From: Candidatus Binatus sp.
GTDB taxonomy: Bacteria > Desulfobacterota > Binatia > Binatales > Binataceae
Direction of reading: 5' to 3'
Length of the DNA stretch: 64,000 nucleotides
NCBI RefSeq assembly: GCF_030646925.1
Contig: NZ_JAUSKL010000042.1
Coordinates: 1 to 64,000 of the forward strand
Both the position numbers and the translations under genes were made by a program. Positions within the stretch are counted from its first letter, which is position 1. Each line of letters opens with the position of its first letter. The notes below the pieces were generated by a model. The model was not told where the DNA came from, did not search any database, and worked only from the letters and a program-made list of their open reading frames with translations. Of this stretch, positions 1,814 through 36,023 are shown one piece after another.

Positions 1814-1982
1814 GCGCCTCAAGTCTAAGGAACCTCGCCGACGATGCATAGCGCGCCTCGAATTAATCGCCGTCAATCGAGTCGATGAGCGAGGCTGGTT
1901 GCGCGGCTGCGGCGCGAAAAGATATGATTTTTCTGGATTTTTAGCGCCACCGCTCGAATCGATCGTCGATCACGGAGGACTG

Positions 1983-2597
1983 ATGTTTACCGGAATCATC
2001 GAAGACCTCGGCACCGTCGAGAGCCTGAAGCCGACCGATCAGGGCGTCGTGATCACGATTCATACTTCGCTGCCGGTTGCCGAGATTTCGATCGGCGATT
2101 CGATCACCGTGAATGGCGCTTGCCTGACCGTGGTTTCGAAAAGTCCGGGACGATTCGCGATGGACGTCTCGGCGGAGACGCTCAGATGCACCGGGCTCGG
2201 CGAGTTGAAGCCGGGCAGTCGCGTGAATCTCGAGCGCTGCCTCACGCTCGGCAAGCTGCTCGGCGGGCATCTGGTTTCGGGACACGTCGACGGCGCCGGC
2301 CGTATCGTTTCGATCAAGCCGGAGGGCGATTCGAGACTTTTCACGTTTGAAGTCGCGCCCGCGCAGGCGCGCTACCTGGTTGAGAAAGGTTCGGTCGCGA
2401 TCGACGGCGCCAGCCTGACCGTGTTCTCGCTCAAGGACTGCAATTTTTCGGTCGAGGTGATCCCGCATACGCTCAGATGCACCACGCTCGGCTTCAAGCA
2501 GGCGGGCGACAGCGTGAATATCGAGACCGACATGCTGGTCAAATATGTAGAGCGGATCCTGGTCGCGCGCGAAACGGCGCGCGGCACGGCGTCGTGA
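1983..2597 (+). CDS. ribE: Riboflavin synthase, alpha subunit
   Basis: A 204-residue protein with the canonical N-terminus MFTGIIEDLGTV and two tandem lumazine-binding domains (about residues 1-97 and 98-195). The second carries the GHLVSGHVDG block. It catalyses dismutation of two 6,7-dimethyl-8-ribityllumazine molecules to riboflavin, the last step of riboflavin synthesis in the cytoplasm. The ATG at 1983 is chosen over upstream in-frame starts because GGAGG sits at 1974-1978 and the protein then begins exactly at the family N-terminus. No other rib gene is visible nearby, and the upstream gap is too short for an FMN riboswitch. Flavin supply fits the many flavo- and F420-type enzymes in the window, but no operon link is seen. 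Confidence 0.95.
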   Translation: MFTGIIEDLGTVESLKPTDQGVVITIHTSLPVAEISIGDSITVNGACLTVVSKSPGRFAMDVSAETLRCTGLGELKPGSRVNLERCLTLGKLLGGHLVSGHVDGAGRIVSIKPEGDSRLFTFEVAPAQARYLVEKGSVAIDGASLTVFSLKDCNFSVEVIPHTLRCTTLGFKQAGDSVNIETDMLVKYVERILVARETARGTAS

Positions 2598-2634
2598 ATC
2601 GCGCGAAATCCCTGTCGCAGAGCATGAATAACGC

Positions 2635-3123
2635 ATGAGCCTGATGCAGATACCGAGGAAGATCGAGTACGCGCTGCGTGCGATGATCTATCTCGCCGAT
2701 CGGCCGTCGGGCGTTGCGCGCGGTACCGAGATCGCCGCGCACGAGCACATCCCGAAGTACTATCTCGAGAAGGTGATTCGCGACCTGATGCGGCGCGGAC
2801 TGGTGCATGCGCGGCGCGGTCCCGGCGGCGGCTATCAGCTTGCGCGCGACGCCAACTCGATTTCGTTCCGCGACATTATCGAGGCGGTCGAGGGTCCGAT
2901 CACGCTCAACGTATGCACCGACGGCAGCAGTTCGTGCGCCTTGCAGCCGTCGTGCCGGATGTACCGCGTGTGGGAAAAAGGCCAGCGCGTCCTGCTCGAA
3001 GTATTTTCGGATACCACGCTCGCGGAAATCGCCGCGTCGCGGCCACCGTCGGAATCGGCGCTTCGCATCACAGATTCGCTCGCGGCGGACGCGCTTTCGC
3101 GCGACAAATCCCAACCCGCCTAG
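2635..3123 (+). CDS. Rrf2-family transcriptional regulator, putative Fe-S type
   Basis: A 162-residue winged-helix repressor of the Rrf2 family. The N-terminal HTH region (about residues 8-70) reads IEYALRAMIYLAD through RGPGGGYQLAR, and a dimerisation helix follows. Three cysteines, Cys94, Cys101 and Cys107, have the spacing of Fe-S ligands in IscR/NsrR/RsrR-type proteins, so iron, redox or NO sensing is likely but unproven. The C-terminal 45 residues are probably disordered. It starts 38 bp after ribE and is followed 50 bp later by an acetyltransferase gene. Target genes cannot be read from sequence. A second Rrf2 protein lies at 27155. Confidence 0.9.
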   Translation: MSLMQIPRKIEYALRAMIYLADRPSGVARGTEIAAHEHIPKYYLEKVIRDLMRRGLVHARRGPGGGYQLARDANSISFRDIIEAVEGPITLNVCTDGSSSCALQPSCRMYRVWEKGQRVLLEVFSDTTLAEIAASRPPSESALRITDSLAADALSRDKSQPA

Positions 3124-3172
3124 CCAGACCGAATTGAACCGATCGCCGTCTTCGGCCCAGCCGCTGTCCGAT

Positions 3173-4354
3173 ATGAGCGAAGACGATCTCGCGGGTATCG
3201 TCAGTGTTGCACCGCCCGCCCGCCGCGGCGCGCGAGTCTTCACCGAGAAGACTTTTTATCTCGAGGAATTTTACGGCAAGAGTCTGCTCTTCGCGCTGAT
3301 TCCGCCGGCCGGCCAGCGGATCGGTGACTTCGATTCGCTGCTGCAGACGCTGCGCGAACTCCGGCGCAATCAGACGCGATGTATCGTGATCGTCGCGCCG
3401 AGCGCGCTGCCCAAGCTGATGCGGCGGCTCGGACGGCTCGCGCCGAAAGAACCGCCGCCGGTGTTCAATCCGTCCGAGGGATTGCGCTCGCGGCCGTATC
3501 CGCCAGACACCGCAGTCGCGGAAATCTGGGAGCGGCTGCGGGCGGGATCGATCGTGGTCGCTTCGATGAGCCGCGACGACGCCGACGATCTCACCGTCTT
3601 CGCCCGCGAACTCGCGAGCCGGCTTCGCGTCTTCAAACTGCTGATGCTGGATCGGGCCGGCGGCTTGCTCGGCCGTAACGGAGAACGGCTCTCGTTCGTC
3701 GAACAAAAACGCATCGGGCGCATGCTGCGCGATATCCGCTCGCCCGCTCGCAGAGCCATCGTGCGCGCCGCGCTCGCCGCGCTCGATGACGGCGTGGGGA
3801 GCGTCAACCTGGTCGCGCCGCGCGACGTTTACGAAGAGCTGTTCAGTTTTATCGGCGCCGGCACGCTCTTCACGGAGCTGCAGTACGGCTTCGTGCGGCC
3901 GGTTTCGATCGACGACTTCGAGGAAGTCGAAGCGTTGATCGTGCGCGGCCAGAACGAAGGATTCCTGCTGCCGCGGAGCCCCGATCAGATCGCGCAGATT
4001 TTGCCGTCGTGCTTCGGCTATCGAATCGGCGACGAGCATCTCGCCGGAATCTGCTCGCTGCTGACCGAGCCGTATCGGCGCGAGCGGGCCGGCGAAATCA
4101 CCGCGATGTACACGCTGACGCGCTTCCAGGGTGAAGGCGTGGCCGCCGTTTTGGTGCGCGAGATCTTGAAGGAAGCGCGCGCGCGACGCCTCAAGTATGT
4201 GTTCGCATGCACCAGCGAGGAGCGCGTCGCGGGATTTTTTGCGCGGCTCGGATTCGATCGCGTCGGCGCCGAAGACGTTTCGCCGGCCAAGTGGCGCGGC
4301 TACGATCCGTCGCGCATCGAGCACCTGCTGATCTTTCGCTCGACTCTCGATTGA
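3173..4354 (+). CDS. N-acetylglutamate-synthase-like protein: degenerate amino-acid-kinase-like domain plus GNAT domain
   Basis: A 393-residue protein. Residues about 20-240 look like a divergent amino-acid-kinase fold (RRGARVFTEKTFYLEEFYGK, then LLDRAGGLLG), as in ArgA-type acetylglutamate synthases. Residues about 245-393 form a GNAT acetyltransferase domain: VRPVSIDDFEEVEALI, the GEITAMYTL strand, and RFQGEGVAAVLVREIL as acetyl-CoA loop. Acetyl transfer from acetyl-CoA is well supported; glutamate as acceptor is inferred from domain order. The ATG at 3173 is preferred; an in-frame TTG at 3134 would add 13 residues. No arg genes are nearby, so the biosynthetic role is uncertain. It closely follows the Rrf2 gene and precedes the glycosyltransferase by 17 bp. 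Confidence 0.75.
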   Translation: MSEDDLAGIVSVAPPARRGARVFTEKTFYLEEFYGKSLLFALIPPAGQRIGDFDSLLQTLRELRRNQTRCIVIVAPSALPKLMRRLGRLAPKEPPPVFNPSEGLRSRPYPPDTAVAEIWERLRAGSIVVASMSRDDADDLTVFARELASRLRVFKLLMLDRAGGLLGRNGERLSFVEQKRIGRMLRDIRSPARRAIVRAALAALDDGVGSVNLVAPRDVYEELFSFIGAGTLFTELQYGFVRPVSIDDFEEVEALIVRGQNEGFLLPRSPDQIAQILPSCFGYRIGDEHLAGICSLLTEPYRRERAGEITAMYTLTRFQGEGVAAVLVREILKEARARRLKYVFACTSEERVAGFFARLGFDRVGAEDVSPAKWRGYDPSRIEHLLIFRSTLD

Positions 4355-4371
4355 CGTTTTTCGGCGCCGCG

Positions 4372-5925
4372 ATGTCTTCTACGCCGAAATTGCCGCTAGC
4401 GATTCCGCCCGCCGCCGCAATCGCGATCGTCGCGATCGTCGTCGCGGTCCTGATGTTTCATCGCATCGGCGCGAGCGACGTCTGCAACGCCAACGAAGCA
4501 GTCGAGGGCGTGTTCGTCCAGCAGATGGTCGAGCACGGTAAACTGCTCTTCCCGCTCGAGAACGGCAGTATCCCGATGTACAAGCCGCCGCTATTTCATT
4601 GGAGCGCCGCCGCGATCGATTACGCCGCCGGCATCCGCAAGGTCACCGCGGCGAACCTGCGATTTCCGTCGGCGCTGTATGCGACCGCGGGCGCGATTCT
4701 CGCGATGCTCTTCGCGTACGGAATACTTGGAATCGAAGGCGCGATCCTCGCCGGCCTGGTACTCGCGGGCTCGTATCAGTACGTGATCCTCGGGCGCTTC
4801 GGCCGCGTCGATATGACCTTGTGCTTCTTCGAAACGCTCGCGCTGTTTGCGTTTATGAGATGGCTGCCGCGCGATTCGACCGCGTTGGCGTCGCGCGCAC
4901 GCGTCGAAGGCAACGTCGGCGCACTCTACCTGATGGCGCTCGCGATGGCTCTGGGAGTGCTCGCCAAGGGCCCGGTCGGCGCGCTTCTTCCGGGACTATC
5001 AATTTTGATTTTCATGATCGTCGAGCGGCGGTGGCGACAAATCTTTGCGATGCTCGATCCGGGCGCCGTCATCCTCGGCGTGGTATTGGCGTCGAGTTGG
5101 TACCTCGCGTGCTACGTCGGCGGACGTTATGGATTCCTCGATCGCCAACTCGGCGACGAAAACGTCGGCCGCTTTTTCGGCTCGCTCGGCGCGATGTCGC
5201 CGGTCTATTACTTGAAGCCGATCCTGCTGAACTCGGCGCCGTTCAGTCTCTTTATTCCCGTCGCCGCCGCGACCGCGCTATCACCTCGATTGCGCCGCGC
5301 ACTTTTCGGCGAACTCGACGCGGCGAGCGATTCCGCTGAAGCCTCGGCCGTATCAACGCCTCGCGCGCTCACCGCGGTGCGACTGTTCGCGATCTTCTAC
5401 TTCGTCACGATCGTGTTTTTCTCGCTCGCTGCGTACAAGCGCCGCGCGTATCTGCTGCCGGTATGGCCCGCGTCGGCGGTGATGCTGGCGTGGTGGATTC
5501 GCAGCATGCCGTCGCCACCATGGCGCCGTATCGCAACCTTGAGTTTCGCCACACTCTGCGCCGCGCTCGCGATTTTCAATTTCGTCTATATCCCGGCGCT
5601 CGAAGTCGCCTCGTGCCGCAACGACAGCTACCGCCCCGCCGCTGAGGAAATCGCGCGCGTGGTCGGCGCCGACGAACCGCTCTACCTGTACGGATTCAAG
5701 GAGGAACTCGCGCCATTGCTCTTCTATCTGGGTCGCGACGCGCCGATGCTGACGGGCCGGCTTGGCGACGCGCCGCCGGGGTACATAATCGTGCCCGCGA
5801 GCGTGTGGAAAAAGCGCGAGCCCGAGGCGCTCGATCTCGAACCAGTGCTGACCTCCGATCACGGCAGCCGGCATCTGGTGGTGCTCAAGCACGGCAAATC
5901 GTATGCGTCACGCAGTTTCCCTTGA
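4372..5925 (+). CDS. GT39/ArnT-like membrane glycosyltransferase
   Basis: A 517-residue polytopic membrane protein of the GT-C superfamily (PMT/ArnT type). It has a first transmembrane helix at about residues 11-28, then a periplasmic loop in the position of the acidic catalytic loop (NANEAVEGVFVQ, where many relatives have DEA). A GRFGRVDMTLCFFE block and roughly ten further hydrophobic segments follow. The C-terminal about 110 residues form a soluble domain. Such enzymes transfer a sugar from a polyprenyl-phosphate donor to lipid A or protein at the outer face of the inner membrane; donor and acceptor are unknown here. The start at 4372 follows the preceding stop by 17 bp, so cotranscription is likely. 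Confidence 0.85.
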   Translation: MSSTPKLPLAIPPAAAIAIVAIVVAVLMFHRIGASDVCNANEAVEGVFVQQMVEHGKLLFPLENGSIPMYKPPLFHWSAAAIDYAAGIRKVTAANLRFPSALYATAGAILAMLFAYGILGIEGAILAGLVLAGSYQYVILGRFGRVDMTLCFFETLALFAFMRWLPRDSTALASRARVEGNVGALYLMALAMALGVLAKGPVGALLPGLSILIFMIVERRWRQIFAMLDPGAVILGVVLASSWYLACYVGGRYGFLDRQLGDENVGRFFGSLGAMSPVYYLKPILLNSAPFSLFIPVAAATALSPRLRRALFGELDAASDSAEASAVSTPRALTAVRLFAIFYFVTIVFFSLAAYKRRAYLLPVWPASAVMLAWWIRSMPSPPWRRIATLSFATLCAALAIFNFVYIPALEVASCRNDSYRPAAEEIARVVGADEPLYLYGFKEELAPLLFYLGRDAPMLTGRLGDAPPGYIIVPASVWKKREPEALDLEPVLTSDHGSRHLVVLKHGKSYASRSFP

Positions 5926-24324: not shown

Positions 24325-26001
24325 ATGTCGTACGACCTTGTTATCAGGAACGGCATCGTGATCGATGGAACGGGCGCGTTTCGCCGGCGCGCCGACGTGG
24401 CGGTTCAGGATGGCCGGGTGGCCGAAATCGGGAAAATCACCGACGCCGCCGCCAAAACAATCGACGCGTCCGACTTGATCGTGGCGCCCGGCTTCGTCGA
24501 TCCGCATACGCATTACGATGCGCAAATCTGCTGGGATCCACTGGTTAGCTGCACCTCATAGCACGGCGTTACGACGGTGGTGATGGGCAACTGCGGAGTG
24601 GGTATCGCGCCCTGCAAGCCGCGCGAGCGCGACGTGCCGTCGTGGGACGTGGTGAACATGCAGGCCATTCCATACGACGCGCTGTCGAAGGGCATCGCGT
24701 GGGAATGGGAGACGTTTCCCGACTTCATGGCGGCGGCGGAACGGCGCGGCGTCGGAATCAATCTCGCATTTCTCGCGCCGCTCACCCCGTTTCGGCATTA
24801 CGTGCTGGGCGACGAATCGATGGAGCGGGCGGCGGAGCCGCGCGAGATCGAGCAAGTCGCGGGATTGCTCCGCGAAGCGATGACAGCGGGCGCGTTCGGA
24901 TTTTCGACCACGACGCTGCGTCATCATATCGGCTACCGGGACAAGCCGTTGGCGTGCCGCCTCGCCTCGCACGAGGAGCTGAAAGCTTACGCCAACGTAC
25001 TGCGCGATCTCGGCCGCGGCGCGATCGAAATCGCGCTCACGCGCAATACCGGCCGCGTCTCCGAGGATGAACAGGCGCTGCTTGAATTTTTGCTCGACGA
25101 AAGCCAGCGACCCGTCACGTGGCTCGGGATCGCGAGCCGGCCCGATCAGCCCGACGCGAGTATGGATACCCTGCATCGACTGGAGCGGTTGATCGAACGG
25201 GGCGGAATACCGCAGGTGCTGTGCAAGCCGCTCGTGGTGCAGATGAATCTTCGCAATCCGTTCACGTTCGCGGACATAGAAATGTGGGAGCCGCTGTTCG
25301 GTCGGCCGGAGGCCGAACAGAAGAAAATCTATCGCGACGCGAAGTTTCGTGCAGCGTTTCGCGAGGAACTGAAGCGGCCGCATCTGTTTCAAGGCAAATG
25401 GAACCGCGTCGAGGTGCTCGAAGTCACGCGCCCGGCGCTCAAATCATGCGAGGGCAAATCGATCACCGAGATCGCATACGAATGGCATCAGGACCCGCTC
25501 GATACGTTCTTCGACCTCGCGCTCGAGGACGATCTGAAGGCCCAGTACACGATGCAGCAGTATCACGAGGAAGGCATCAAGCAGCTCATTTGCGATTCGC
25601 GCACCATGATCGGGCTGTCCGACGGCGGCGCGCACGTGAATACGCTGTGCGACGCCGGATACTGCACCTATCTGCTCGGCACATGGGTGCGTGAGCGCCG
25701 CGCGATGACGCTGGAGCAGGCCGTCAAGCGGATCACGTCGGAGCCGGCGGATTTCTTCGGAATCAAGGATCGCGGGCGGCTGAAGGTCGGTCTGCCGGCG
25801 GATATGGCAATCTTCAACGAGGCCCGCGTTGGTTCGGCCACTCGTGCGCGGATGCAAAACGATCTGCCGGGCGGCGGGCGGCGGCTGGTGATGCCGGCGA
25901 TCGGAATCGAATACACGATCGTCAATGGCGACGTGCTGTTTCAGCAGGGGCATCACACCGGCTACCTGCCGGGGCGGGTGCTGCGCTCGTCGGCGCTTTG
26001 A
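24325..26001 (+). pseudogene. D-aminoacylase-family amidohydrolase interrupted by in-frame TAG
   Basis: A 559-codon frame with N-acyl-D-amino-acid-deacylase-type sequence: metal ligands His61 and His63 in GFVDPHTHYDAQ, then HGVTTVVMGNCGVG, and the C-terminal GLSDGGAH block. Codon 79 (24559-24561) is TAG. In the relative encoded at 49708 the aligned residue is Trp81 (TGG), with no gap between the proteins. So a single TGG-to-TAG change is enough. After the stop the frame stays open to 26001; an ATG at 24577 could restart but would lack the N-terminal metal site. Either it is a recent pseudogene, a readthrough gene, or a base error. The LLM gene follows by 116 bp. Confidence 0.85.
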
Positions 26002-26117
26002 TCCGAGCGCATTGCCGTCCAAAGCTGGATGCGGAATACGCATCGTCGGTGCGTGAGTTGTGCTATGAAACTGGCTTGGGCGCGTTATCGTCCGCACCAA
26101 TCCAGGAGGAATCGCAA

Positions 26118-26960
26118 ATGGCAGAATTTGGAATTTCGATGTTCCCGACCGACTACGCAATCCAGCCCGTCGAGCTTGCTCTTGCCGCCGAGCAGCGCGG
26201 CTTCGAGTCGATGTTCTTTCCCGAGCACACGCATATCCCTACCTCGCGCAAGACGCCGTTTCCGGGCGGCACCGAGTTGCCGAAGGAATACTGGCATACG
26301 CACGATCCATTCGTGGCGCTCGGCGCGGCGGCCGCCGTCACCAAGAAGCTGAAGCTCGGCACCGGCGTATGCCTGGTGATCGAGCGCGATCCGATCACGC
26401 TTGCGAAGGAAGTCGCGTCGCTCGACATGATCTCGAACGGCCGCGTGATTTTCGGAATCGGCGCGGGCTGGAACGTCGAGGAGATGTCGAATCACGGGGC
26501 CATCTTCAAGAAGCGCTGGAAAATCGTGAAGGAGAAGATCCTCGCGATGCGCCAAATCTGGACCAAGGAAGCGGCTGAGTATCACGGTGAATTCGTGAAC
26601 TTCGATCCGATCTGGTCCTTTCCAAAGCCGGTGCAGGCGGGCGGTCCGCCGGTGCTGCTGGGCTCGCAATCGCCGAAAACTTTCGATCGCGTCGCCGAAT
26701 ACTGCGACGGCTGGATGCCGATAAATTTCCCCCGGTACGATCTGGCGGCCAGCGTGAAGGCACTGAGCGAAGCCGGCAAGAAGGCGGGCCGCGACAAGCT
26801 GCCGATCTCGATGTTCGGCGTGGATCCCGATGAGGGTCAGATCAAGAAATTCCTCGATATGGGTCTTGACCGACTGATTTTTGCGCTGCCGGCGGCGTCG
26901 CGCGAAACGATTCTGCCGATGCTCGACAAGTATGCGGAACTGAAAGCAAAAGCTCACTAG
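26118..26960 (+). CDS. LLM-class F420-dependent oxidoreductase
   Basis: A 280-residue luciferase-like TIM-barrel protein: MAEFGISMFPTDYAIQPVEL at the N-terminus, FFPEHTHIPTSRKTPFPGG, the cofactor block GTGVCLVIERDPITLAKEVASLD, and FGIGAGWNVEEM. It most likely uses coenzyme F420 (or FMN) for hydride transfer to a carbonyl or related substrate. AGGAGG with good spacing fixes the ATG at 26118. A strong terminator follows at 26988. Confidence 0.9.
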   Translation: MAEFGISMFPTDYAIQPVELALAAEQRGFESMFFPEHTHIPTSRKTPFPGGTELPKEYWHTHDPFVALGAAAAVTKKLKLGTGVCLVIERDPITLAKEVASLDMISNGRVIFGIGAGWNVEEMSNHGAIFKKRWKIVKEKILAMRQIWTKEAAEYHGEFVNFDPIWSFPKPVQAGGPPVLLGSQSPKTFDRVAEYCDGWMPINFPRYDLAASVKALSEAGKKAGRDKLPISMFGVDPDEGQIKKFLDMGLDRLIFALPAASRETILPMLDKYAELKAKAH

Positions 26961-26987
26961 GAATCGCAGGTCGTCACGGATTTGCGG

Positions 26988-27020
26988 AGGGATCCCCCCT
27001 CGGGGGGATCCCTTTTTTTC
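26988..27020 (+). terminator. Rho-independent terminator
   Basis: Perfect 12-bp stem AGGGATCCCCCC / GGGGGGATCCCT around a two-base centre, followed by a run of seven T residues (one shared with the stem end). It ends transcription of the LLM gene and separates it from the sulfate regulon. Confidence 0.9.
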
Positions 27021-27108
27021 AGTTGAGGGCGGCAGCTTGGTTCGTCGGGGGGTCTGCGAAAAGCCTTTTGGACCTCAAAAGCAGGCAAGATTTATTTGTC
27101 GAGACCGC

Positions 27109-27149
27109 TTGACACAATTTCGCGAGCCTGATTAGTCTAGCCGCCTTAT
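27109..27149 (+). promoter_or_regulatory. Promoter with Rrf2-type operator for the regulator gene
   Basis: A consensus -35 TTGACA lies at 27109-27114. About 17-18 bp downstream, the -10 region (27132-27138) overlaps ATTAGTCTAG, which is the left part of the operator seen at 27624. A degenerate right half CCTTAT sits where ACTAAT is found in the other site. The overlap with the -10 suggests autorepression by the Rrf2 protein encoded from 27155. Start site and binding are inferred. Confidence 0.55.
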
Positions 27150-27154
27150 CGGGA

Positions 27155-27613
27155 ATGCTGTCTAAAAAATCGAAATACGCGCTCAAGGCTCTGATGGTCC
27201 TTGCCAAGGAACATGGACAAGGACCGGTGCTGATCTCGGATATCGCACGCCGGGAGGGGATTCCGCCCAAGTTTCTGGAGCTCATTCTGCTCGAACTCAA
27301 GAACCAGGGAATCCTGCAGAGCAAGAAGGGCAAGGGGGGCGGGTATTTCCTTGGCCGTGAGCCTCATCTGATTAGCGTCGGCCATGTTATACGCGTCTTA
27401 GATGGGCCTATTGCGCCGTTGCCATGCGTCAGTAAAACCGCCTATATGCGATGCCGCGAGTGCCGCGACGAGAAAAGCTGCGGTATCCGGCTGGTGATGA
27501 AAGAGGTGCGGGACGCGACCGCGAAAATCATGGATTCGACCTCGCTCGCAGACATGCTTAAGCGCGTGGAATCGGTGGTGACGGGCAAGGAATCGCTGAG
27601 TTTCGCGATATAA
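27155..27613 (+). CDS. Rrf2-family regulator of the sulfate-uptake genes
   Basis: A 152-residue Rrf2 winged-helix protein: SKYALKALMVLAKEHGQG, recognition region IPPKFLELILLELKNQGIL and wing KKGKGGGYFLGR. It has four cysteines in the C-terminal half, Cys91, Cys100, Cys103 and Cys109, suitable for an Fe-S cluster or thiol sensing. It heads a same-strand set of sulfate-transport genes, so a CymR-like control of sulfur assimilation is likely. Matching operator-like sequences lie over its own promoter and just before the yezD-like gene. Confidence 0.88.
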   Translation: MLSKKSKYALKALMVLAKEHGQGPVLISDIARREGIPPKFLELILLELKNQGILQSKKGKGGGYFLGREPHLISVGHVIRVLDGPIAPLPCVSKTAYMRCRECRDEKSCGIRLVMKEVRDATAKIMDSTSLADMLKRVESVVTGKESLSFAI

Positions 27614-27623
27614 TTTTTTGGGG

Positions 27624-27642
27624 ATTAGTCTAGTCAACTAAT
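27624..27642 (+). promoter_or_regulatory. Rrf2-type operator before the sulfate operon
   Basis: Spaced palindrome ATTAGT-CTAGTCA-ACTAAT, 6-bp half-sites separated by 7 bp, 9 bp before the yezD-like ATG. The first ten bases are identical to the sequence at 27131-27140. Its place at the ribosome-site/promoter region of the first structural gene fits repression by the adjacent Rrf2 regulator. Confidence 0.6.
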
Positions 27643-27651
27643 AGGATAACA

Positions 27652-27849
27652 ATGAAAATCGAATCGTCGCCGACCAGCATTGCTTCGAATTCATCGGTAC
27701 CCGAAAGCCACGAGCAGATCCTCGAACGGATTGCTCACGCAATCAGTGGCGTACGGTTCGGATCGGTGGAAGTCGTAATCCAGGACTCGAAAGTCGTCCA
27801 AATCGAACGCAAGGAAAAGTTCCGCTTCGACAGAGGTGGCGGGCGCTAG
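27652..27849 (+). CDS. YezD-family (DUF2292) small protein
   Basis: A 65-residue protein whose core HEQILERIAHAISGVRFGSVEVVIQ and VVQIERKEKFRF matches the YezD family, regularly found in sulfate/sulfonate assimilation operons of many bacteria. Biochemical function is unknown. It is the first structural gene after the operator at 27624 and before the porin and sulfate ABC genes, which supports a role in sulfur metabolism here too. Confidence 0.82.
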   Translation: MKIESSPTSIASNSSVPESHEQILERIAHAISGVRFGSVEVVIQDSKVVQIERKEKFRFDRGGGR

Positions 27850-27992
27850 CGAGGCGGCTGCATCCCTGATTTTTTTAATTGAGGCGCCGCCGGACCAAGG
27901 AAGGATCGGGCGCGCCGCGATAAACGTAATGAGTATCAACTTCGAGCTGACCGGGCATCCGGAGGTTCCCCAGAGGGTGAGGGACGTCCGCG

Positions 27993-29432
27993 ATGAACAA
28001 TTCAGCGAAACCGTTTCTGCCGGCGGTTTTAGTGCTGGCGCTGAGCGGGATTTTTCCCACTGGATCGGCGCAAGCTCAAAACCGGCTGACCGACGAGCAG
28101 AAGAACCAGGTCATCTCTGAGCTCAAGGAAGAGATCAAGAAACTCGAGGCGCGGGTGGAGACGCTCGAGAGCCTCGACCAGAAAGTGAAAATGATCGACC
28201 GCAAGCTGGAAGTGCAGCAAGAGACGGAAATCGCCAAGGCGAAGGAACTGCCGGTCGTCAAGGCCGGGGCGCAAGGCTTTTCCCTGTCGTCGCCTAATAA
28301 TGAATTTCAATTCAAGTTAGGCGCGCTGCTGCAGGGCGACGGGCACTTTTTCACCAGCGGCAACGATAAACCAACGACCGGCAGTACCTTCTATCTCAAT
28401 CGTGCGCGGCCGATCTTCACCGCCACGGTCTTCAAGTACTACGAGTTCAACCTCACGCCGGACTTCGGCCAGGGCAAGGTTACGCTGCAGGATGCGTACC
28501 TCAACTCGAGTTGGTACCAGCAGGCGCAGCTACTCAGCGGAAAGTTCAGATCGCCGTTCGGCCTCGAGCGGCTGCAATCCGATCGTGACCTCGCCTTCTC
28601 TCAACGCGCCGAGACGGAAAACCTGGTGCCGAACCGCGATATCGGCGCGGAAGTGCATAGCGATTTGTTCGACGGGCGCCTGACCTATCAACTCGCGCTG
28701 ATGAATGGTGTGCCGAACAACACCGCCAGCGTCGATTTCGACAACAACGACGGCAAGGATTTCCTCGGCCGCGTGTTCGCGCTGCCATTCAAGAAATCCG
28801 ACAACCAGTGGTTGCGCGCAATCGGCGTGGGATTCGCGGGCACCTACGGCGACGAACGCGGCAGTACCGTCTCGACGTACAAGACCTACGGATCGTCCAC
28901 GTGGTTTTCGTACAACAAGGGCGTGACCGCGTCGGGCGAGCGCTATCGCCTGTCGCCGCAGGCTTATTACTACAACGGGCCGTTCAGCATGATGGCGCAG
29001 TACGTTTCCGATCGGCACACGCTGAACCGCTTCGTCAAACTCACGAAAGGTTTGGTAAACGATACCGAGACCTTTACCGACGACGGCTACAGCGCGCAGG
29101 CAACCTACGTTCTGACCGGCGAGGATGCGTCGTACTACGGGGTCAAGCCGTACCACGTATTTGACCCACGCGTCGGCACTATCGGGGCGTGGGAACTCGC
29201 CGCTCGAATCAGCAATGTTTCGACCGACTCGAGCCAGTTCAAACTCAATTTCGCCAATCCCACGGTTTCGGCGCGCACCGCGACGGAATGGGCGGTTGGT
29301 ATGAACTGGTATCTGAATAATTTCATCAAGTGGCAATTCGACTATGCGCGCACCTTTTTCGACAAAGGCGCGGTATTCGGCGACCGTCCGGACGAAAGCG
29401 TGTTCGAGACGCAACTGCAGATCGCATTCTGA
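27993..29432 (+). CDS. Phosphate-selective-porin-like (OprO/OprP) outer-membrane porin
   Basis: A 479-residue outer-membrane protein. A signal peptide (about 1-28, cleaved after AQA) is followed by a predicted coiled coil (about 32-75) and a beta-barrel with alternating aromatic residues, ending in Phe as outer-membrane barrels do. The barrel start FKLGALLQGDGHFF and YEFNLTPDFGQGKVTLQDAYLN are typical of the OprP/porin_O_P family. Placement between the yezD-like gene and a sulfate-binding protein suggests it admits sulfate or organosulfate rather than phosphate; this is inference. Confidence 0.87.
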   Translation: MNNSAKPFLPAVLVLALSGIFPTGSAQAQNRLTDEQKNQVISELKEEIKKLEARVETLESLDQKVKMIDRKLEVQQETEIAKAKELPVVKAGAQGFSLSSPNNEFQFKLGALLQGDGHFFTSGNDKPTTGSTFYLNRARPIFTATVFKYYEFNLTPDFGQGKVTLQDAYLNSSWYQQAQLLSGKFRSPFGLERLQSDRDLAFSQRAETENLVPNRDIGAEVHSDLFDGRLTYQLALMNGVPNNTASVDFDNNDGKDFLGRVFALPFKKSDNQWLRAIGVGFAGTYGDERGSTVSTYKTYGSSTWFSYNKGVTASGERYRLSPQAYYYNGPFSMMAQYVSDRHTLNRFVKLTKGLVNDTETFTDDGYSAQATYVLTGEDASYYGVKPYHVFDPRVGTIGAWELAARISNVSTDSSQFKLNFANPTVSARTATEWAVGMNWYLNNFIKWQFDYARTFFDKGAVFGDRPDESVFETQLQIAF

Positions 29433-29489
29433 AGGGTGGAGCAATCGGCGATGCGATCGAGACTCGAACCAATCCGAACGGAGCGAAAG

Positions 29490-30509
29490 ATGCCCAAGTT
29501 CAATTTGAGGCTCGCCGCTGCGACGATCGCGGCGAGCCTCATGCTCAATCTTGGTGCAGCGTACGGCAAGGAGATCACGCTGCTCAATGTCTCCTACGAC
29601 CCGACGCGCGAGCTTTACGAAGCGGTGAACGCGCAGTTCGCGAAGAACTGGAAAGCAAAGACCGGCGACGACGTTGCGATCAATCAATCGCACGGCGGCT
29701 CGGGCAAGCAGGCGCGCGCCGTGATCGACGGGCTCGAGGCGGACGTCGTCACACTCGCGCTGGCCGGCGATATCGATGCGATTTCCGAGAAGGCCAATCT
29801 GCTGCCGCCGAACTGGCAAAAGCGGCTGCCCGACAACAGCGTGCCGTACTTCTCGACAATCGTGCTGCTGGTGCGCACCGGCAATCCCAAGAAAATCCAC
29901 GACTGGGACGATCTGGTGAAGCCGGGCATCGCCGTGGTGACGCCGAATCCGAAGACCTCGGGCGGTGCGCGCTGGAACTTCCTCGCGGCGTGGGGATACG
30001 CGCTCAAGAAAAACGGCGGCGACGCGGACAAGGCCAAGGACTACGTCGCGGCGCTGTACAAGAACGTGCCGGTACTCGATTCGGGCGCGCGCGGCGCGAC
30101 CACTACGTTCGTCGAGCGCGGAATCGGCGACGTGCTGATCGGATGGGAAAACGAGGCGCTGATGGCGCGCAAGCAATTCGGCAAGGACAAATTCGAGATC
30201 GTCTATCCATCGATCAGCGTCCAGGCGGAACCGCCGGTGGCGTGGGTCGATAAGGTCGATAGCCGGCACGGGACGGCGAACATCGCGAAGGCGTATCTCG
30301 AATTTATGTACACGCCGGAGGGACAGGAAATCGGCGCGCAGAATTTCTATCGTCCGCGCGATCCGGCGGTGGCGGCGAAATACGCGAACCAGTTCCCGGC
30401 CGTGACGTTTCTCACGATCGACGGCGATTTCGGCGGATGGAAAACCGCGCACCAGCAATTTTTCGGCGACGGCGGCGTGTTCGACAAGATTTATCTGCCC
30501 GGCAGTTGA
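29490..30509 (+). CDS. sbp: Sulfate ABC transporter substrate-binding protein
   Basis: A 339-residue periplasmic binding protein with signal peptide (about 1-25). Family blocks: [66 protein letters not shown] and [11 protein letters not shown], which form the sulfate-binding pocket in Sbp/CysP. It delivers sulfate (or thiosulfate) to CysTWA, encoded next. GGAG at 29480-29483 fixes the ATG at 29490. Confidence 0.94.
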
Positions 30510-30565
30510 CGCGAATCGCGGGCACGAAAGCAATGCGGTGAAACTTGAGCAAGGAGGAAATGCGG

Positions 30566-30616
30566 CTGAGATCGATTAGCGCCTGAGATCGATTAGCGCC
30601 TGAGATCGATGGCATC
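30566..30616 (+). repeat. 17-bp tandem repeat running into the cysT start
   Basis: CTGAGATCGATTAGCGC occurs twice head to tail (30566-30582, 30583-30599). A third diverging copy begins at 30600 and contains the cysT ATG. A strong AAGGAGG at 30551-30557 lies about 50 nt before that ATG. It is followed 2 nt later by another ATG (30560) that opens an eight-codon frame ending in TGA within the repeats. Confidence 0.8.
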
Positions 30617-31436
30617 GAAGAAAAATAACGTGTTGCCGGGCTTCAACCTGACGCTCGGCTTCACGCTCGCTTATCTCGGAATCGTGGTCTTGATTCCGCT
30701 TTCGACGATCTTTTTCAAGACATTCACGCTGACGTGGGCCGAGTTCTGTCATGCGGTGATGTCGCCGCGCACGATTGCGGCCTATCGGCTGAGCTTCGGC
30801 GCGTCGCTCGCGGGCGCGCTGATCAACTCGGTGTTCGGCTTTATCGTGGCGTGGACGCTGGTCCGCTATGAATTTCCGGCGCGCAAGCTGATCGACGTGA
30901 TGGTCGATCTGCCGTTCGCGCTGCCGACTTCGGTGGCGGGAATCACGCTCACCGCAATCTATGCGCAGAACGGATGGCTCGGGCGTGTGCTCGAGCCGAT
31001 GGGGGTCAAGGTGGCGTTCGCGCCGCTCGGCGTGGTGGTCGCGCTGACCTTCGTCGGGCTGCCGTTCGTGGTGCGCACGATTCAGCCGGTGCTGGAGGAC
31101 CTCGACGCGGAATACGAGGAAGCAGCGGCGACGCTCGGCGCGGGCCGCATGCAGACGTTTATCAAGGTGATCGCGCCGGCGCTGATTCCGGCGCTGCTCA
31201 CCGGCTTTGCGCTGGCGTTTGCGCGCGCGCTCGGCGAGTACGGCTCGGTGGTGTTCATCTCGGGCAACATGCCGATGCGCACCGAGGTGGTGCCGCTGTT
31301 GATCATGGCGAAGCTGGAGCAATTCGACTACGCGGGCGCGACGGCGATCGCAGTGGTGATGCTGGTGGTGTCGTTTCTGCTGTTGCTCGGCGTGAATGTT
31401 TTGCAGCGCTGGAGCAGTCAGCGGCTGACCGCGTGA
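30609..31436 (+). CDS. cysT: Sulfate ABC transporter permease CysT
   Basis: A 275-residue inner-membrane permease with about six transmembrane segments and the EAA coupling loop EEAAATLGAGRMQTFIKVIAPAL. FTLAYLGIVVLIPLSTIFFKT at the N-terminus is typical of CysT/CysU. With CysW it forms the channel for sulfate import powered by CysA. The ATG lies in the third copy of a 17-bp tandem repeat; the nearest good ribosome site is about 50 nt upstream, so translation initiation may be unusual. Confidence 0.93.
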   Translation: MASKKNNVLPGFNLTLGFTLAYLGIVVLIPLSTIFFKTFTLTWAEFCHAVMSPRTIAAYRLSFGASLAGALINSVFGFIVAWTLVRYEFPARKLIDVMVDLPFALPTSVAGITLTAIYAQNGWLGRVLEPMGVKVAFAPLGVVVALTFVGLPFVVRTIQPVLEDLDAEYEEAAATLGAGRMQTFIKVIAPALIPALLTGFALAFARALGEYGSVVFISGNMPMRTEVVPLLIMAKLEQFDYAGATAIAVVMLVVSFLLLLGVNVLQRWSSQRLTA

Positions 31437-31451
31437 GGATTGGGAGTAGCG

Positions 31452-32357
31452 ATGCTCGAGAATTTCGGTTGGCTGATTCAACCTGAGACGCAGCCGGGCA
31501 AATCCGCGACGGCCGATCCGCCGCTGGTGCGGTTCGCGCTGATCGCAATCGCGATGCTGTTCCTCGGGCTGTTTCTTTTTATCCCGGTGGCGGCGGTATT
31601 CGCGCAGGCGTTGCAGCAGGGCCTCGGCGCATATCTGAAGGCGATCATCGATCCCGAGGCGCGCTCCGCAATTCGGCTCACGCTGATGACGGCGGCGATC
31701 GCGGTGCCGCTCAACGTGCTGTTCGGCGTGGCGGCGTCGTGGGCGATTGCGCGCTTTGATTTTCCCGGCAAGCAGTTCCTGATCACGCTGATCGACATCC
31801 CGTTCTCGGTCTCGCCGGTGATCGCCGGGATGATGTTCGTGCTGCTGCTTGGGGTGCGCGCGCCGCTCGGCGGATGGCTCTACGATCACGGGATCAAGAT
31901 AATTTTCGCCGAGCCCGGAATCGTGCTCGCGACAATTTTCGTAACCTTCCCACTCGCGGCGCGCGAGTTGATTCCGATCATGCAGGCGGTCGGCAGCGAG
32001 GAAGAAGAGGCGGCGATCGTGCTCGGCGCCGGCGGCTGGAAGACGTTTCTGCGCGTGACGCTGCCCAACGTCAAGTGGGGCTTGCTGTACGGGATGGTGC
32101 TCTGCAACGCGCGCGCGATGGGCGAGTTCGGCGCGGTGTCGGTGGTCTCGGGCCATATCCGGGGGCATACCAACACGATGCCGCTCTATATCGAGATTAT
32201 GTACAACGACTATCACTACGTGGCCGCGTTCGCGGTGTCGTCGCTGCTCACGCTGCTGGCGATTGCGACGCTGATCGCGAAGCATTTCCTCGAGCGCCGC
32301 GTGATTCCTGAGATGCAAAAAGAGGTGCGCGAAATCGAGACCAAGGTGGCGGCATGA
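31452..32357 (+). CDS. cysW: Sulfate ABC transporter permease CysW
   Basis: A 301-residue inner-membrane permease. The EAA loop is [28 protein letters not shown], and [29 protein letters not shown] is diagnostic for CysW. It pairs with CysT. GGGAG precedes the ATG at 31452, which is preferred to TTG at 31440. The cysA start overlaps its stop (ATGA). Confidence 0.94.
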
Positions 32358-33424
32358 GTATCGAGCTGCGCAATATCAGCAAGAAATTCGGCGATTTCGT
32401 CGCGCTCGACAATATCAGTCTCGAGATCGAGACCGGCGAATTGGTCGCGCTGCTGGGACTTTCAGGCTCCGGCAAAACCACGCTGCTGAGAATAATCGCG
32501 GGCCTCGAGACGCCCGACCGCGGCGAGGTGCTGTTTCACGGCGAAGACACGTCGTCGGTCAGCGTTCGCGATCGCAAGGTCGGCTTCGTTTTTCAGCATT
32601 ACGCGCTGTTTCGGCACATGACGGTGTTTGAGAATATCGCATTTGGGCTGCGGGTCCGTCCGCGCGGCACGCGGCCGAGCGAAGCCGAAATCGGACGCCG
32701 GGTTCACGAACTCCTCAAACTGGTTCAGCTCGATTTTCTGCACGATCGATATCCGTCGCAGCTATCGGGCGGACAGCGCCAGCGCGTCGCACTGGCGCGC
32801 ACGCTCGCGGTCGAGCCGAAGGTGCTGCTGCTCGACGAACCGTTCGGCGCGCTCGACGCGAAGGTGCGCCAGGAGTTGCGCCGCTGGCTCCGCCGCTTGC
32901 ACGACGAGATCAAGATCACCAGCGTGTTCGTCACGCACGATCAGGAAGAAGCGCTCGAGCTGGCGAATCGAATCGTGGTGATGAACCAGGGACATATCGA
33001 GCAAATCGGCAGCGCGGAGGAAGTCTATCATCAGCCGGCCAACGCGTTCGTGTACAATTTTCTTGGCAACGTGAACCTGTTCCACGGGCGAATCGAGAAC
33101 GGCAAAGTGTTCATCGGCGATACCTCGGTCGAAGTCGATGACACGCACGCGCACGTTCATCCCGAGGGCGGCAAGGCGGTGCTGTACGTCAGGCCGCATC
33201 GATTGGAAATCGTGACCAAGTCCAACGGCAAGCAGGCCTTTCCGGCGACCGTCAAATCGATCAATCCCGCGGGTCCGCAGGTGAAGGTCGAATTGATCGC
33301 AGCGTGGGGAGATTTGGTGCAGGTCGAGATCGATCACGAGCGCTACCAGGAACTTAAGCTGGCGACCGGCGCCAATGTTTATCTGCGGCCGAAAGAACAG
33401 AAGCTGTCCATGTACCAAATCTGA
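32354..33424 (+). CDS. cysA: Sulfate ABC transporter ATPase CysA
   Basis: A 356-residue ABC ATPase. Walker A GLSGSGKT (35-42), Q-loop FVFQHYALF, signature LSGGQRQR (137-144), Walker [10 protein letters not shown] with Asp161-Glu162, and switch His in [10 protein letters not shown] are intact. A C-terminal TOBE-like domain (about 235-356) follows. It energises CysTW. It is the last gene of the operon, with the start coupled to cysW by a 4-bp overlap. Confidence 0.95.
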
Positions 33425-33539
33425 TCTTTTCAGCATCCTAATAGTCAGTGGCGTGAATCCGGGATGGTCAGTCGCCATCGGGAACGAACAAATCGGTATG
33501 GGGGTTCGTCTATACATCGCAGGATTAGAGCAGAAACCC

Positions 33540-33561
33540 CACAGGCTAAAGCCTGTGCCAC
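33540..33561 (-). repeat. Dispersed palindromic repeat, copy 2
   Basis: CACAGGCTAAAGCCTGTG followed by CCAC: the exact reverse complement of the 22-bp unit at 9759-9780. It lies between cysA and msrB. Confidence 0.85.
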
Positions 33562-33633
33562 AATGAAGCGGCCGCCGACAGCTTTTCTCAGAGTTTCTGG
33601 AGATTTAGTCGGATGATCGATTTCGCCAGCGAT

Positions 33634-33678
33634 GTCATTCTGAGGCGAAGGCTGCGCAGCCGAAGAATCCCGGATCTC
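33634..33678 (+). repeat. 45-bp palindromic dispersed repeat, copy 1
   Basis: Begins GTCATTCTGAGGCGAAGG and ends CGAAGAATCCCGGATCTC, with the central palindrome GGCTGCGCAGCC. Compared base by base, it matches the reverse complement of 54288-54332 at 44 of 45 positions. A decayed relative starts at 20951. Confidence 0.85.
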
Positions 33679-33692
33679 GGAACTGCGTCGTG

Positions 33693-33808
33693 CTGCACCC
33701 TCACCCGCCTCATCGCTGACGCGCTTCGGCTTCCCTCTCCCGCAACCAAGCGGGCGAGGGAGAAGAACGAGATCCTTCGACTCCGGCAGCCTGCGCTCAG
33801 GATGACGG
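33693..33808 (+). repeat. Composite dispersed repeat, long copy
   Basis: Starts CTGCACCCTCACCCGCC, contains the hairpin CTCTCCCGC ... GCGGGCGAG and ends CAGGATGACGG. The same order of blocks occurs at 41853-41949, which lacks about 19 bases in the right half. Confidence 0.8.
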
Positions 33809-33866
33809 CAAGAAAGACGCGCGGCGGCGAGAGCACGCGTGCTGGGACTGATGCTAGGATGACGAC

Positions 33867-34487
33867 GTGAACGACAACGGCACTGCGCTGATCGGGCGGC
33901 GCGCGTTCCTCGCCGCGCTGGGATTGATTCCGGCGGCAATCGCGCTCGGCTTCGACTATAATGTAACCGGCGCGGCCGCGGCGGCATCTGATGAAAACGC
34001 GCCGGGCGCGGCGAAGGTCGTCACGGTCAAGCTGGTCGAATTCACGGATTCCGGCGAGAGGAAGGGAATCGTCATGGCTGAGAAAGTCGTAAAAACCGAT
34101 GAAGAATGGCGCAAGCAATTGACGCCCGAGCAGTACAAGGTCGCGCGCAAGAAAGGCACCGAGCGGCCGTTCACGAATCTCTACGCCAACAATCACGACA
34201 AGGGCATCTATCGATGCATCTGCTGCGGCAACGCGCTGTTCAGCTCCGACACCAAGTTCGAGTCGGGCACCGGATGGCCGAGTTTCTATGAGCCGATCGC
34301 GCCCGAGAACGTCCGCAACGAGAGTGACCGGTCCTTTTTCGTGCGGCGCACCGAAGTGGTGTGCGCTAAGTGCGACGCGCATCTGGGACACGTATTCGAC
34401 GACGGCCCCGCGCCGACCGGTCAGCGCTACTGCATGAATTCGGCGGCACTCAATTTCGCAAACGCCGACGGAGCGAAGAAATCCTGA
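33867..34487 (+). CDS. msrB: Peptide-methionine (R)-S-oxide reductase with Tat-like signal
   Basis: A 206-residue MsrB. The N-terminus [10 protein letters not shown] plus a hydrophobic stretch looks like a twin-arginine signal, so it probably acts in the periplasm. The MsrB domain is at about 75-200: zinc cysteines Cys117, Cys120, Cys166 and Cys169, substrate block [20 protein letters not shown], and catalytic Cys189 in RYCMNSAAL. It reduces methionine-R-sulfoxide in proteins. The start is GTG at 33867. No MsrA gene is adjacent. Confidence 0.93.
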
Positions 34488-34581
34488 AGCGGGAGTCAGG
34501 CCGACGCGACCGCATCGCGGGAGCGATTCGAGTAGCACGGACAGCTTGCTCGCGTAGCACCTGAAAAGGGGCCGGTGATCG

Positions 34582-35136
34582 ATGAGTCCCATCGATGCGC
34601 GCACGTACCGGGTCGAGGCGACGCTCCGCGACGGCGGAGCGATTTGCATTCGCGCGATTCGGCCCGACGACAAAGCGCGGCTGCTCGAGCATTTCGCGGG
34701 GCTCAGTCCGCAGTCGGTCTATTTTCGTTTCATGGGAATTCGGCGCGAGCTTTCGGAACGCGATCTCAAGGACCTGACCGAACTGGACTTCATCAATCAC
34801 GTCGGGCTGGTGGCGACGATCACCGAGGGCGGGGTCGAGCGGCTGGTCGGAGTCGGGCGGTACATCCGCGGCGCCCACCCGGAGCGGGCGGAGCTGGCGT
34901 TCGCGATACTCGACAAGCATCAGGGACGCGGAATCGGTACGCTGCTGCTCGAGCATCTGAACCATATCGCGCACGCCAACGGAATCACCGAGTTCGAGGC
35001 GAATGTGCTCGGCGACAACACTCGGATGCTCGAGGTGTTTGCGCATAGCGGGCTCAAGGTTCGCCGCTCGTTTGAATCGGGCGTAGTACATTTGTACTTT
35101 TCAACCGACGAGCCGGGCGAATCTTCCGGCGAGTGA
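34582..35136 (+). CDS. GNAT-family acetyltransferase (Pat-like)
   Basis: A 184-residue GNAT protein: IRAIRPDDKARLLEHFAGLSP, the AELAFAILDKHQGRGIGTLLLEHL acetyl-CoA pyrophosphate loop, and C-terminal NTRMLEVFAHSGLKVRRSFESG. The sequence resembles the catalytic domain of protein-lysine acetyltransferases of the Pat/PatZ type, here as a free-standing domain without cyclic-nucleotide or CoA-ligase-like domain. Targets such as acyl-CoA synthetases are possible but inferred. A weak purine-rich site precedes the ATG. Confidence 0.82.
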   Translation: MSPIDARTYRVEATLRDGGAICIRAIRPDDKARLLEHFAGLSPQSVYFRFMGIRRELSERDLKDLTELDFINHVGLVATITEGGVERLVGVGRYIRGAHPERAELAFAILDKHQGRGIGTLLLEHLNHIAHANGITEFEANVLGDNTRMLEVFAHSGLKVRRSFESGVVHLYFSTDEPGESSGE

Positions 35137-35167
35137 CTCTTCACCGGTACGCCGAACGAGGTGAGCG

Positions 35168-35932
35168 ATGTGCGCAGTCGAGTATTTCACCGAAGGTGAG
35201 GTTGCCATCGTAACGATCGACCGGCCGGAGGCGAGGAACGCGGTCGATCGGCCGACGGCGATACTGCTCGCGGAAGCGTTTCGGCGCTTCGATGCGGACG
35301 CGGCGCTGTCGGTGGCGATCCTGACGGGCGCCAACGGGACGTTCTGCGCGGGCGCGGACTTGAAGGCGGTCGCGAGCGAGCGCGGCAATCGCGTCGGCGC
35401 CGATGGCGACGGTCCGCTCGGATGCACGCGGATGCTGCTAGGCAAGCCGGTGATCGCGGCGGTCGAGGGATTTGCCGTCGCGGGCGGACTCGAACTCGCG
35501 CTCTGGTGCGATCTGCGGGTCGCGGCGCGGGATGCGACCTTCGGCGTTTACTGCCGGCGCTTCGGCGTGCCGCTGGTCGATGGCGGTACGGTTCGATTGC
35601 CGCGGCTTATCGGGATGAGCCGCGCGATGGACATGATTCTCACCGGACGCGGCGTGTCGGGCGAGGAAGCATTTGCGATGGGGCTCGCGAATCGAGTCGT
35701 CGAGCGTGGCGGCGCGCTGATGGCGGCGCGCGAACTCGCAAAATCGATCGCGGCATTTCCGCAGCGATGCGTGCGATCCGATCGAATGTCGGCCTACGAG
35801 GGCTGGGGCTTTACGATCGACGACGCGATGCAGAATGAGTATCGGCACGGAATCGCGACGATCAATTCGGGCGAGACGCGCGCCGGCGCGGAGCGATTCG
35901 CGGCGGGCGTCGGCCGTCACGGCAAATTTTGA
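35168..35932 (+). CDS. Enoyl-CoA hydratase/isomerase family protein
   Basis: A 254-residue crotonase. Oxyanion-hole segments are FCAGADLKAVA and VEGFAVAGGLELALWCDLRVAA. The position usually holding the second catalytic Glu (VPLVDGGTVRLPRLIG) has Asp, so it may be an isomerase or hydrolase-type member rather than a classical hydratase. It acts on acyl-CoA substrates in the cytoplasm. GAGGTGAGCG before the ATG is a good ribosome site. It starts 31 bp after the acetyltransferase gene. Confidence 0.9.
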   Translation: MCAVEYFTEGEVAIVTIDRPEARNAVDRPTAILLAEAFRRFDADAALSVAILTGANGTFCAGADLKAVASERGNRVGADGDGPLGCTRMLLGKPVIAAVEGFAVAGGLELALWCDLRVAARDATFGVYCRRFGVPLVDGGTVRLPRLIGMSRAMDMILTGRGVSGEEAFAMGLANRVVERGGALMAARELAKSIAAFPQRCVRSDRMSAYEGWGFTIDDAMQNEYRHGIATINSGETRAGAERFAAGVGRHGKF

Positions 35933-36023
35933 GACGGGCGAAATAATCCTCGCACGCCCCATTGTTTCGTATTGATGCGTCCTGTAGAGTTACGACCAAG
36001 CCAATCGTGGCTTATGCGCGCGT

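What the first reader, a model, noticed from the sequence alone, without database searches (positions are those of the whole stretch)
27109..27642. Paired ATTAGT-N7-ACTAAT sites mark an Rrf2-controlled sulfate regulon
ATTAGTCTAG occurs over the -10 region of the rrf2 gene and again, as a full spaced palindrome, 9 bp before the yezD-like gene. The regulator, YezD-like protein, porin, Sbp and CysTWA follow in order. This gives a concrete operator hypothesis for a four-cysteine Rrf2 protein acting like CymR in a Gram-negative organism.
Basis: partly seen in the sequence, partly recalled or inferred. Interest (0 to 1): 0.55.

Follow-up and report, generated by a model that had tools for sequence, protein, structure and literature searches.

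The report
Operator of a sulfur-uptake repressor
A short DNA signal beside a regulator gene and its sulfate-uptake genes is conserved beside the same kind of regulator in bacteria of several phyla, which points to a widespread, so far uncharacterised relative of the cysteine repressor CymR.

Summary
The repeats are real: ATTAGTCTAG lies at 27131 and 27624, and the perfect ATTAGT-N7-ACTAAT dyad only at 27624. That dyad is not the widely conserved signal. The conserved site is a 21-bp dyad, ANTCTAK-N7-MTAGANT (core TCTA-N9-TAGA), centred 4 bp further right. It overlaps the predicted -10 of rrf2 and lies in the rrf2-yezD gap. In 64 Rrf2 loci outside the window's family, exact TCTA-N9-TAGA occurs 24 times within 200 bp of rrf2 ends and 6 times in the other 649 kb. 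In some relatives further sites flank Sbp-SulP, cysK or cysK-metY-metX genes. In the window's own genome only the two known sites stand out. The Rrf2 protein has a conserved four-cysteine motif; its nearest solved fold is CymR, but it misses NCBIfam's CymR and IscR cut-offs. Best reading: an autoregulated sulfur-status repressor of a Candidatus Binataceae bacterium that works like CymR, with its own operator and probably a metal or Fe-S sensor. Binding, ligand and direction of control are inferred.

The parts
27109..27114 (+). predicted -35 (TTGACA) of the rrf2 promoter
   Evidence: TTGAC[AT] at 17-18 bp from TA[ACG]TCT in 10 of 18 loci compared; prediction
27133..27138 (+). predicted -10 (TAGTCT) of rrf2, overlapping the left operator arm
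   Evidence: prediction
27134..27154 (+). operator 1, AGTCTAG-N7-ATCGGGA, ending at the rrf2 start codon
   Evidence: conserved position in relatives; weak by model, 11.9 bits, E 1.65 for the genome
27155..27613 (+). rrf2: Rrf2-family regulator, 152 aa, C91-X8-C-X2-C-X5-C109
   Evidence: Pfam PF02082 1.2e-36; below NCBIfam CymR and IscR cut-offs
27614..27619 (+). T-run between the rrf2 stop and operator 2
   Evidence: a run of 6 or more T in 14 of 15 loci where yezD follows rrf2; role unknown
27627..27647 (+). operator 2, AGTCTAG-N7-ATAGGAT, 4 bp before the yezD-like ATG
   Evidence: the only exact match of ARTCTAKNNNNNNNMTMGRNT in the genome; best R2 site of the genome, 21.0 bits; 0 of 200 shuffles reach its score
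27652..27849 (+). yezD-like small protein (DUF2292; OscA-related)
   Evidence: PF10055 5.8e-17; OscA model 51 bits, below its cut-off of 85
27993..29432 (+). outer-membrane porin (Porin_O_P)
   Evidence: PF07396 3.9e-19
29436..30509 (+). Sbp, sulfate-binding protein
   Evidence: TIGR00971 484.8 bits, cut-off 155.5
30609..31436 (+). CysT, sulfate permease subunit
   Evidence: TIGR02139 403.4 bits, cut-off 246.1
31440..32357 (+). CysW, sulfate permease subunit
   Evidence: TIGR02140 387.5 bits, cut-off 329.1
32354..33424 (+). CysA, sulfate transport ATPase
   Evidence: TIGR00968 401.1 bits, cut-off 342.75
33867..34487 (+). MsrB-like; possible further member of the unit
   Evidence: TIGR00357 206.3 bits; follows cysA in 5 same-genus loci and lies next after rrf2 in L047 and L050; inference

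Best explanation
The two repeats are operators for the Rrf2-family protein encoded between them. Inferred mechanism: when sulfur is plentiful the Rrf2 dimer binds ANTCTAK-N7-MTAGANT over the rrf2 promoter and in front of the yezD-porin-sbp-cysTWA unit and shuts both off; when sulfur runs short the protein lets go, and porin and sulfate ABC transporter are made. The four conserved cysteines probably hold a metal or Fe-S cluster whose state reports sulfur supply. Shown by sequence: the conserved dyad, its position at the promoter and gap, its link to rrf2 and to sulfate/cysteine genes across phyla. Inferred: binding by this protein, repression, the signal, the cluster.
For: Phylogenetic footprint: sites in the rrf2-yezD gap score beyond 95% of shuffles in 13 of 15 same-family loci where yezD follows rrf2 and in 0 of 11 where it does not (Fisher p 2e-5). 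Model-free test outside the family: TCTA-N9-TAGA 24 times near rrf2 (26.6 kb, 19 of 64 loci) against 6 in 649 kb; spacings 3-8 and 10-15 give 0-2 near; six control arm pairs at N9 give 0-3 near (p 9e-29). Profile R2 gives 31 rows (26 distinct sites by my recount; 23 within 250 bp of rrf2 ends) in 70 loci, a reversed-column control model 0. In 36 same-family genomes R2 gives 55 rows (53 places) and the control 8 rows; 18 of the 53 were, by my count, not among the 33 training sites. Off-locus sites flank Sbp-like/SulP, cysK, cysK-metY-metX/W genes. The -10 of rrf2 overlaps the operator in 10 of 18 loci. Sulfate or cysteine genes lie within about 6 kb in 44 of 80 Rrf2 loci. Nearest solved fold is CymR, the cysteine regulator of Bacillus subtilis.
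Against: No binding or expression data. In the window's own genome no further site exceeds controls (23+16 rows against 28+28). Operator 1 is weak (11.9 bits). Only 7 of 25 off-locus places in the family lie, by my inspection, in a gap or unit with clear sulfate/cysteine/methionine genes; others flank porins, LLM or TauD oxygenases, DUF1329 or unknown genes, and two of the six stretches inspected in other phyla show no sulfur gene. G028 has three R2 rows but no close Rrf2 homologue found, while G010, G031 and G033 have the Rrf2 but no R2 row. 36 of 80 Rrf2 loci show none of the sulfur genes tested.
Confidence: 0.77

Rival explanations
1. The dyad is the operator, but the protein senses iron, redox or NO (as IscR, RirA, NsrR do), and sulfate genes respond because Fe-S clusters need sulfur.
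For: Four conserved cysteines; IscR, RsrR and NsrR structures are among the next best folds; IscR model at 69.7 bits.
Against: Linked genes found are sulfate, cysteine, methionine and porin genes; no isc/suf genes were noted at the sites inspected, though no dedicated isc/suf search was made; nearest fold is CymR.
Confidence: 0.13
2. The repeats are a conserved promoter element (left arm a -10 box), not a repressor site.
For: The left arm coincides with the predicted -10 of rrf2 in 10 of 18 loci.
Confidence: 0.05
3. ATTAGT-N7-ACTAAT as drawn by the first reader is the true operator.
For: Perfect at the yezD site; kept at 4.7 of 6 arm pairs in the 7 same-genus loci.
Against: 1.7 of 6 at rrf2 promoters of the same genus, 3.1 and 2.6 of 6 in other genera; TAGT-N7-ACTA 0 near and 0 far in 64 loci outside the family.
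Confidence: 0.04

Closest known systems
CymR of Bacillus subtilis and Staphylococcus aureus
   Same: Rrf2 family; nearest solved fold (2y75, E 4.3e-12, TM 0.76 on the query); a regulator of cysteine metabolism (passages of PMC2940859), as the linked genes here suggest.
   Different: Misses NCBIfam's CymR cut-off (83.1 of 195 bits). BsCymR binds no Fe-S cluster and acts with CysK (passages of PMC9338935, PMC2940859); here four cysteines are invariant in 45 aligned relatives. Operators were not compared by computation; the CymR consensus is only recalled.
IscR, RirA, NsrR, RsrR (Fe-S Rrf2 regulators)
   Same: Family and fold; cysteines in the matching region; for ScNsrR a 23-bp site with a central 7-bp region is described (passages of PMC9338935), like the N7 centre here.
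   Different: Scores far below the IscR, RirA and NsrR cut-offs; four, not three, conserved cysteines; linked genes are sulfur-uptake genes.
Rrf2/CymR-like protein IGTS8_peg394 of Rhodococcus qingshengii
   Different: The passages describe no operator and say its neighbourhood encodes no sulfur genes; its sequence was not compared here.

Membership tests
Rrf2 superfamily | match to PF02082 / TIGR00738 above cut-off | tested here: met
   126.2 bits (cut-off 30); 117.9 bits (cut-off 73.3)
CymR (NCBIfam NF047409) | score above the equivalog cut-off | tested here: not met
   83.1 of 195 bits
CymR | fold | tested here: met
   best solved match 2y75; shared with the rest of the Rrf2 family
CymR | complex with CysK, response to O-acetylserine/cysteine | not testable with these tools
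   needs biochemistry
CymR | control of cysteine/sulfur genes | tested here: inconclusive
   sites at sulfate, cysK and metYX genes in relatives; no expression data
IscR (TIGR02010) | score above the equivalog cut-off | tested here: not met
   69.7 of 207.55 bits
IscR/NsrR/RirA type | three-cysteine cluster pattern | tested here: inconclusive
   four cysteines C-X8-C-X2-C-X5-C in this protein; C-X7..9-C-X2-C-X4..6-C in 80 of 80 best loci; cluster binding not testable
OscA (NF033785) | score above the equivalog cut-off (yezD-like protein) | tested here: not met
   51 of 85 bits; does belong to DUF2292

The most novel reading that the evidence does not exclude
This is one member of a phylum-spanning subfamily of four-cysteine Rrf2 repressors, the Gram-negative counterpart of CymR, that reads sulfur status through its own Fe-S or metal site and acts on one conserved operator, TCTA-N9-TAGA. 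In Geobacterales it would also reach nitrogenase-like (nifB/nifH-like) genes clustered with yezD and cysK, perhaps for salvage of organic sulfur.
Probability: 0.4. Interest if true: 0.75.

Novelty: new variant of a known kind. Interest (0 to 1): 0.55.

Why it matters
How sulfur assimilation is controlled in many bacteria outside the LysR (CysB) and CymR model organisms is open. A concrete operator with a strict spacing, found beside one Rrf2 subfamily in at least seven phyla by record title besides the Binataceae, makes regulator and regulon directly testable, including in cultured Geomonas and Geotalea strains that carry it. It also offers a model for whether an Rrf2 protein can sense sulfur through a cluster made of sulfur.

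Tried and rejected
A wider regulon in the window's own genome was looked for with the exact and relaxed reader pattern, models R1 and R2 (only 150 of 340 and 150 of 223 candidates were scored) and an IUPAC pattern; nothing beyond the two sites exceeded controls. A site at cysK was sought in 30 loci; 4 of 30 gave rows, none from the own genome. An RNA element was considered: Rfam gave 0 matches in 26000-36000. The simple promoter scan reported no + strand promoter in 26900-28050; the rrf2 promoter rests on comparison. Literature: ten searches of an open-access library gave no paper, in the listings I saw, describing this operator or an Rrf2 regulator of sulfate transport outside Firmicutes apart from PMC8557817; most listed papers were seen only as listings. 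RegPrecise and SEED could not be searched; that RAST uses labels such as 'regulator of sulfate transport, Rrf2 family' is recalled, and the phrase search found only two plant papers.

Recounts and dropped rows: of 58 regions scored, 28 sites were kept by eye as seeds; 27 went into model R1 (one duplicate dropped); R2 used 22 of those plus 11 of 12 further sites. One search printed 24 near and 3 far sites; one site (L134) was counted twice there, so I use 23 and 3, 26 in all; two of my notes carry the old figure or its source. The 70 loci include 6 Binataceae loci; one search excludes all 16 that I assigned to that family by title or contig. Among the 24 near hits two overlap in L118; two of the 6 far hits lie just beyond 200 bp.

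Full report
What was claimed and what is there. Both copies are exact and in place, against 0.013 expected. Only the copy before the yezD-like gene forms the perfect ATTAGT-N7-ACTAAT palindrome; the rrf2 copy has two mismatches. The palindrome is unique in the 4.58 Mb genome. The relaxed pattern is not enriched in the window (8 against 5.25), so the case rests on conservation.

Organism and genes. Closest named records of the Rrf2 gene belong to uncultured Deltaproteobacteria (palsa MAGs), Candidatus Binatus soli and Candidatus Binataceae, so the window is very probably from a Candidatus Binataceae bacterium (the window's own record is not named). Downstream of rrf2 lie a DUF2292 (YezD/OscA-like) protein, a Porin_O_P porin, Sbp, CysT, CysW and CysA, then MsrB-like and GNAT genes. 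Sbp, CysT, CysW and CysA pass NCBIfam cut-offs of sulfate transporter models.

Footprint in the family. One search found a close orthologue (E 1e-50 or better) in 24 of 36 same-family genomes, own genome included, by my count. Neighbourhoods of 29 Rrf2 genes (window plus 28 loci) were compared. Where yezD directly follows rrf2, a site in the gap scores beyond 95% of shuffles in 13 of 15 loci (L048 is at 6%, L052 at 25%); where it does not, in 0 of 11 same-family loci (p 2e-5). rrf2 promoters carry TTGAC[AT]-17/18-TA[ACG]TCT with the -10 inside the left operator arm in 10 of 18 loci, as expected of autoregulation by occlusion (inference).

Register. These sites were picked with a seed holding the shifted dyad, so a seed-free test was made outside the family. 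In 64 loci, exact TCTA-N9-TAGA occurs 24 times within 200 bp of rrf2 ends (26.6 kb, 19 loci) and 6 times in the remaining 649 kb; all other spacings from 3 to 15 give 0-2 near rrf2, six other arm pairs at N9 give 0-3, and TAGT-N7-ACTA gives 0 (Fisher p 9e-29; loci are not fully independent). By record title the 19 loci fall in Desulfuromonadales/Geomonas, Omnitrophota, Verrucomicrobia, Bacteroidota (including Cytophagaceae and Bernardetiaceae), Truepera, Proteobacteria and Myxococcota.

Profile searches and control. R2, built from 33 sites, gives 55 rows (53 places) in 36 same-family genomes; a model of the same columns reversed gives 8 rows in 6 genomes, best E 0.24. R2 contains training sites; by my count 18 of the 53 places are not among them. 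In 70 loci R2 gives 31 rows, R3 none. Of 26 distinct sites 23 lie within 250 bp of rrf2 ends; the other three lie after a cysK in Geomonas, before a porin in Desulfuromonas and before a DUF1329-like gene in a Binataceae contig.

Other targets. Of 53 places in the family, 28 are at rrf2 and 25 elsewhere. By inspection, 7 of the 25 share a gap or unit with clear sulfate, cysteine or methionine genes: Sbp-like/SulP in G025 and G011, cysK in G025 (two sites) and G034, an outer-membrane protein gene followed by cysK-metY-metX/W in G004 of the same genus, and lipoprotein-porin-Sbp in G015. Others flank porin-like, ABC-type, LLM, TauD, DUF1329 or unknown genes, which may or may not be sulfur genes. 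In 15 genomes of other groups R2 gives 1-5 rows in 14, mostly at rrf2. Of six further stretches inspected, four flank sulfur genes (Geotalea Sbp and a nifB-like/yezD/nifH-like/cysK cluster, Verrucomicrobia porin-Sbp, Geomonas cysT-like, Geomonas cysK) and two do not (L282, L284).

The protein. Rrf2 family, 152 aa. The motif C-X7..9-C-X2-C-X4..6-C is present in 80 of 80 best loci, which were chosen by similarity; C91, C100, C103 and C109 are invariant in 45 aligned sequences. Sulfate or cysteine genes from the reference set lie within about 6 kb in 44 of 80; by eye at least one more, L178, has cysH- and cysD-like genes. Many Acidobacteria loci show no such neighbours. No NCBIfam equivalog cut-off is passed by the window protein. 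The AlphaFold2 model (pLDDT 92.9, pTM 0.84) matches CymR best; by sequence, T. potens IscR (4cic) and CymR are first.

Mechanism and odds. Shown: a conserved dyad at the promoter and gap, tied to this Rrf2 subfamily and to sulfur genes. Inferred: that the protein binds it, represses, is released by sulfur shortage, and uses the cysteines for a metal or Fe-S site. I put 0.77 on the operator-repressor reading and 0.4 on the stronger subfamily-wide Fe-S version.

Relation to known systems. CymR is the closest known regulator in fold and in likely role. BsCymR has no Fe-S cluster and works with CysK (passages of PMC9338935, PMC2940859), and the window protein fails the CymR cut-off, so I do not file it as CymR. 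A sulfur-linked Rrf2 protein outside Firmicutes has been mentioned for Rhodococcus (PMC8557817 passages). I found no description of this operator in ten searches of the open-access library; databases of predicted regulons were not available.

Noticed in passing
window 2635-3123 (+): A second Rrf2-family gene (162 aa, three cysteines in the sensor region) lies just after a riboflavin synthase-like ORF; about 30% identical to the first.
   Followed up: no
window 27614-27619 and the same gap in relatives: A run of 6 or more T sits between the rrf2 stop and the gap operator in 14 of 15 loci where yezD follows rrf2; weak terminator or promoter part, unexplained.
   Followed up: partly
L281 (Geotalea) 1858-5802; L285 and L286 (Geomonas edaphica): nifH- and nifB-like genes cluster with yezD-like, cysK and sulfate transport genes, with R2 sites at the cluster; possibly nitrogenase-like sulfur salvage (my recall of methylthio-alkane reductase, not tested).
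   Followed up: partly
window 33867-34487; L039, L041-L044, L047, L050: An msrB-like gene follows cysA in same-genus loci and lies next after rrf2 in two other genomes, so it may belong to the same regulon.
   Followed up: no
G028 (L216, L217, L218): A same-family genome without a close Rrf2 orthologue still has three R2 rows; the gene may lie in an assembly gap or another regulator may use the site.
   Followed up: partly
window 26986-27015 (+): Strong intrinsic-terminator-like hairpin (13 pairs) after the LLM-class gene, separating it from rrf2.
   Followed up: no
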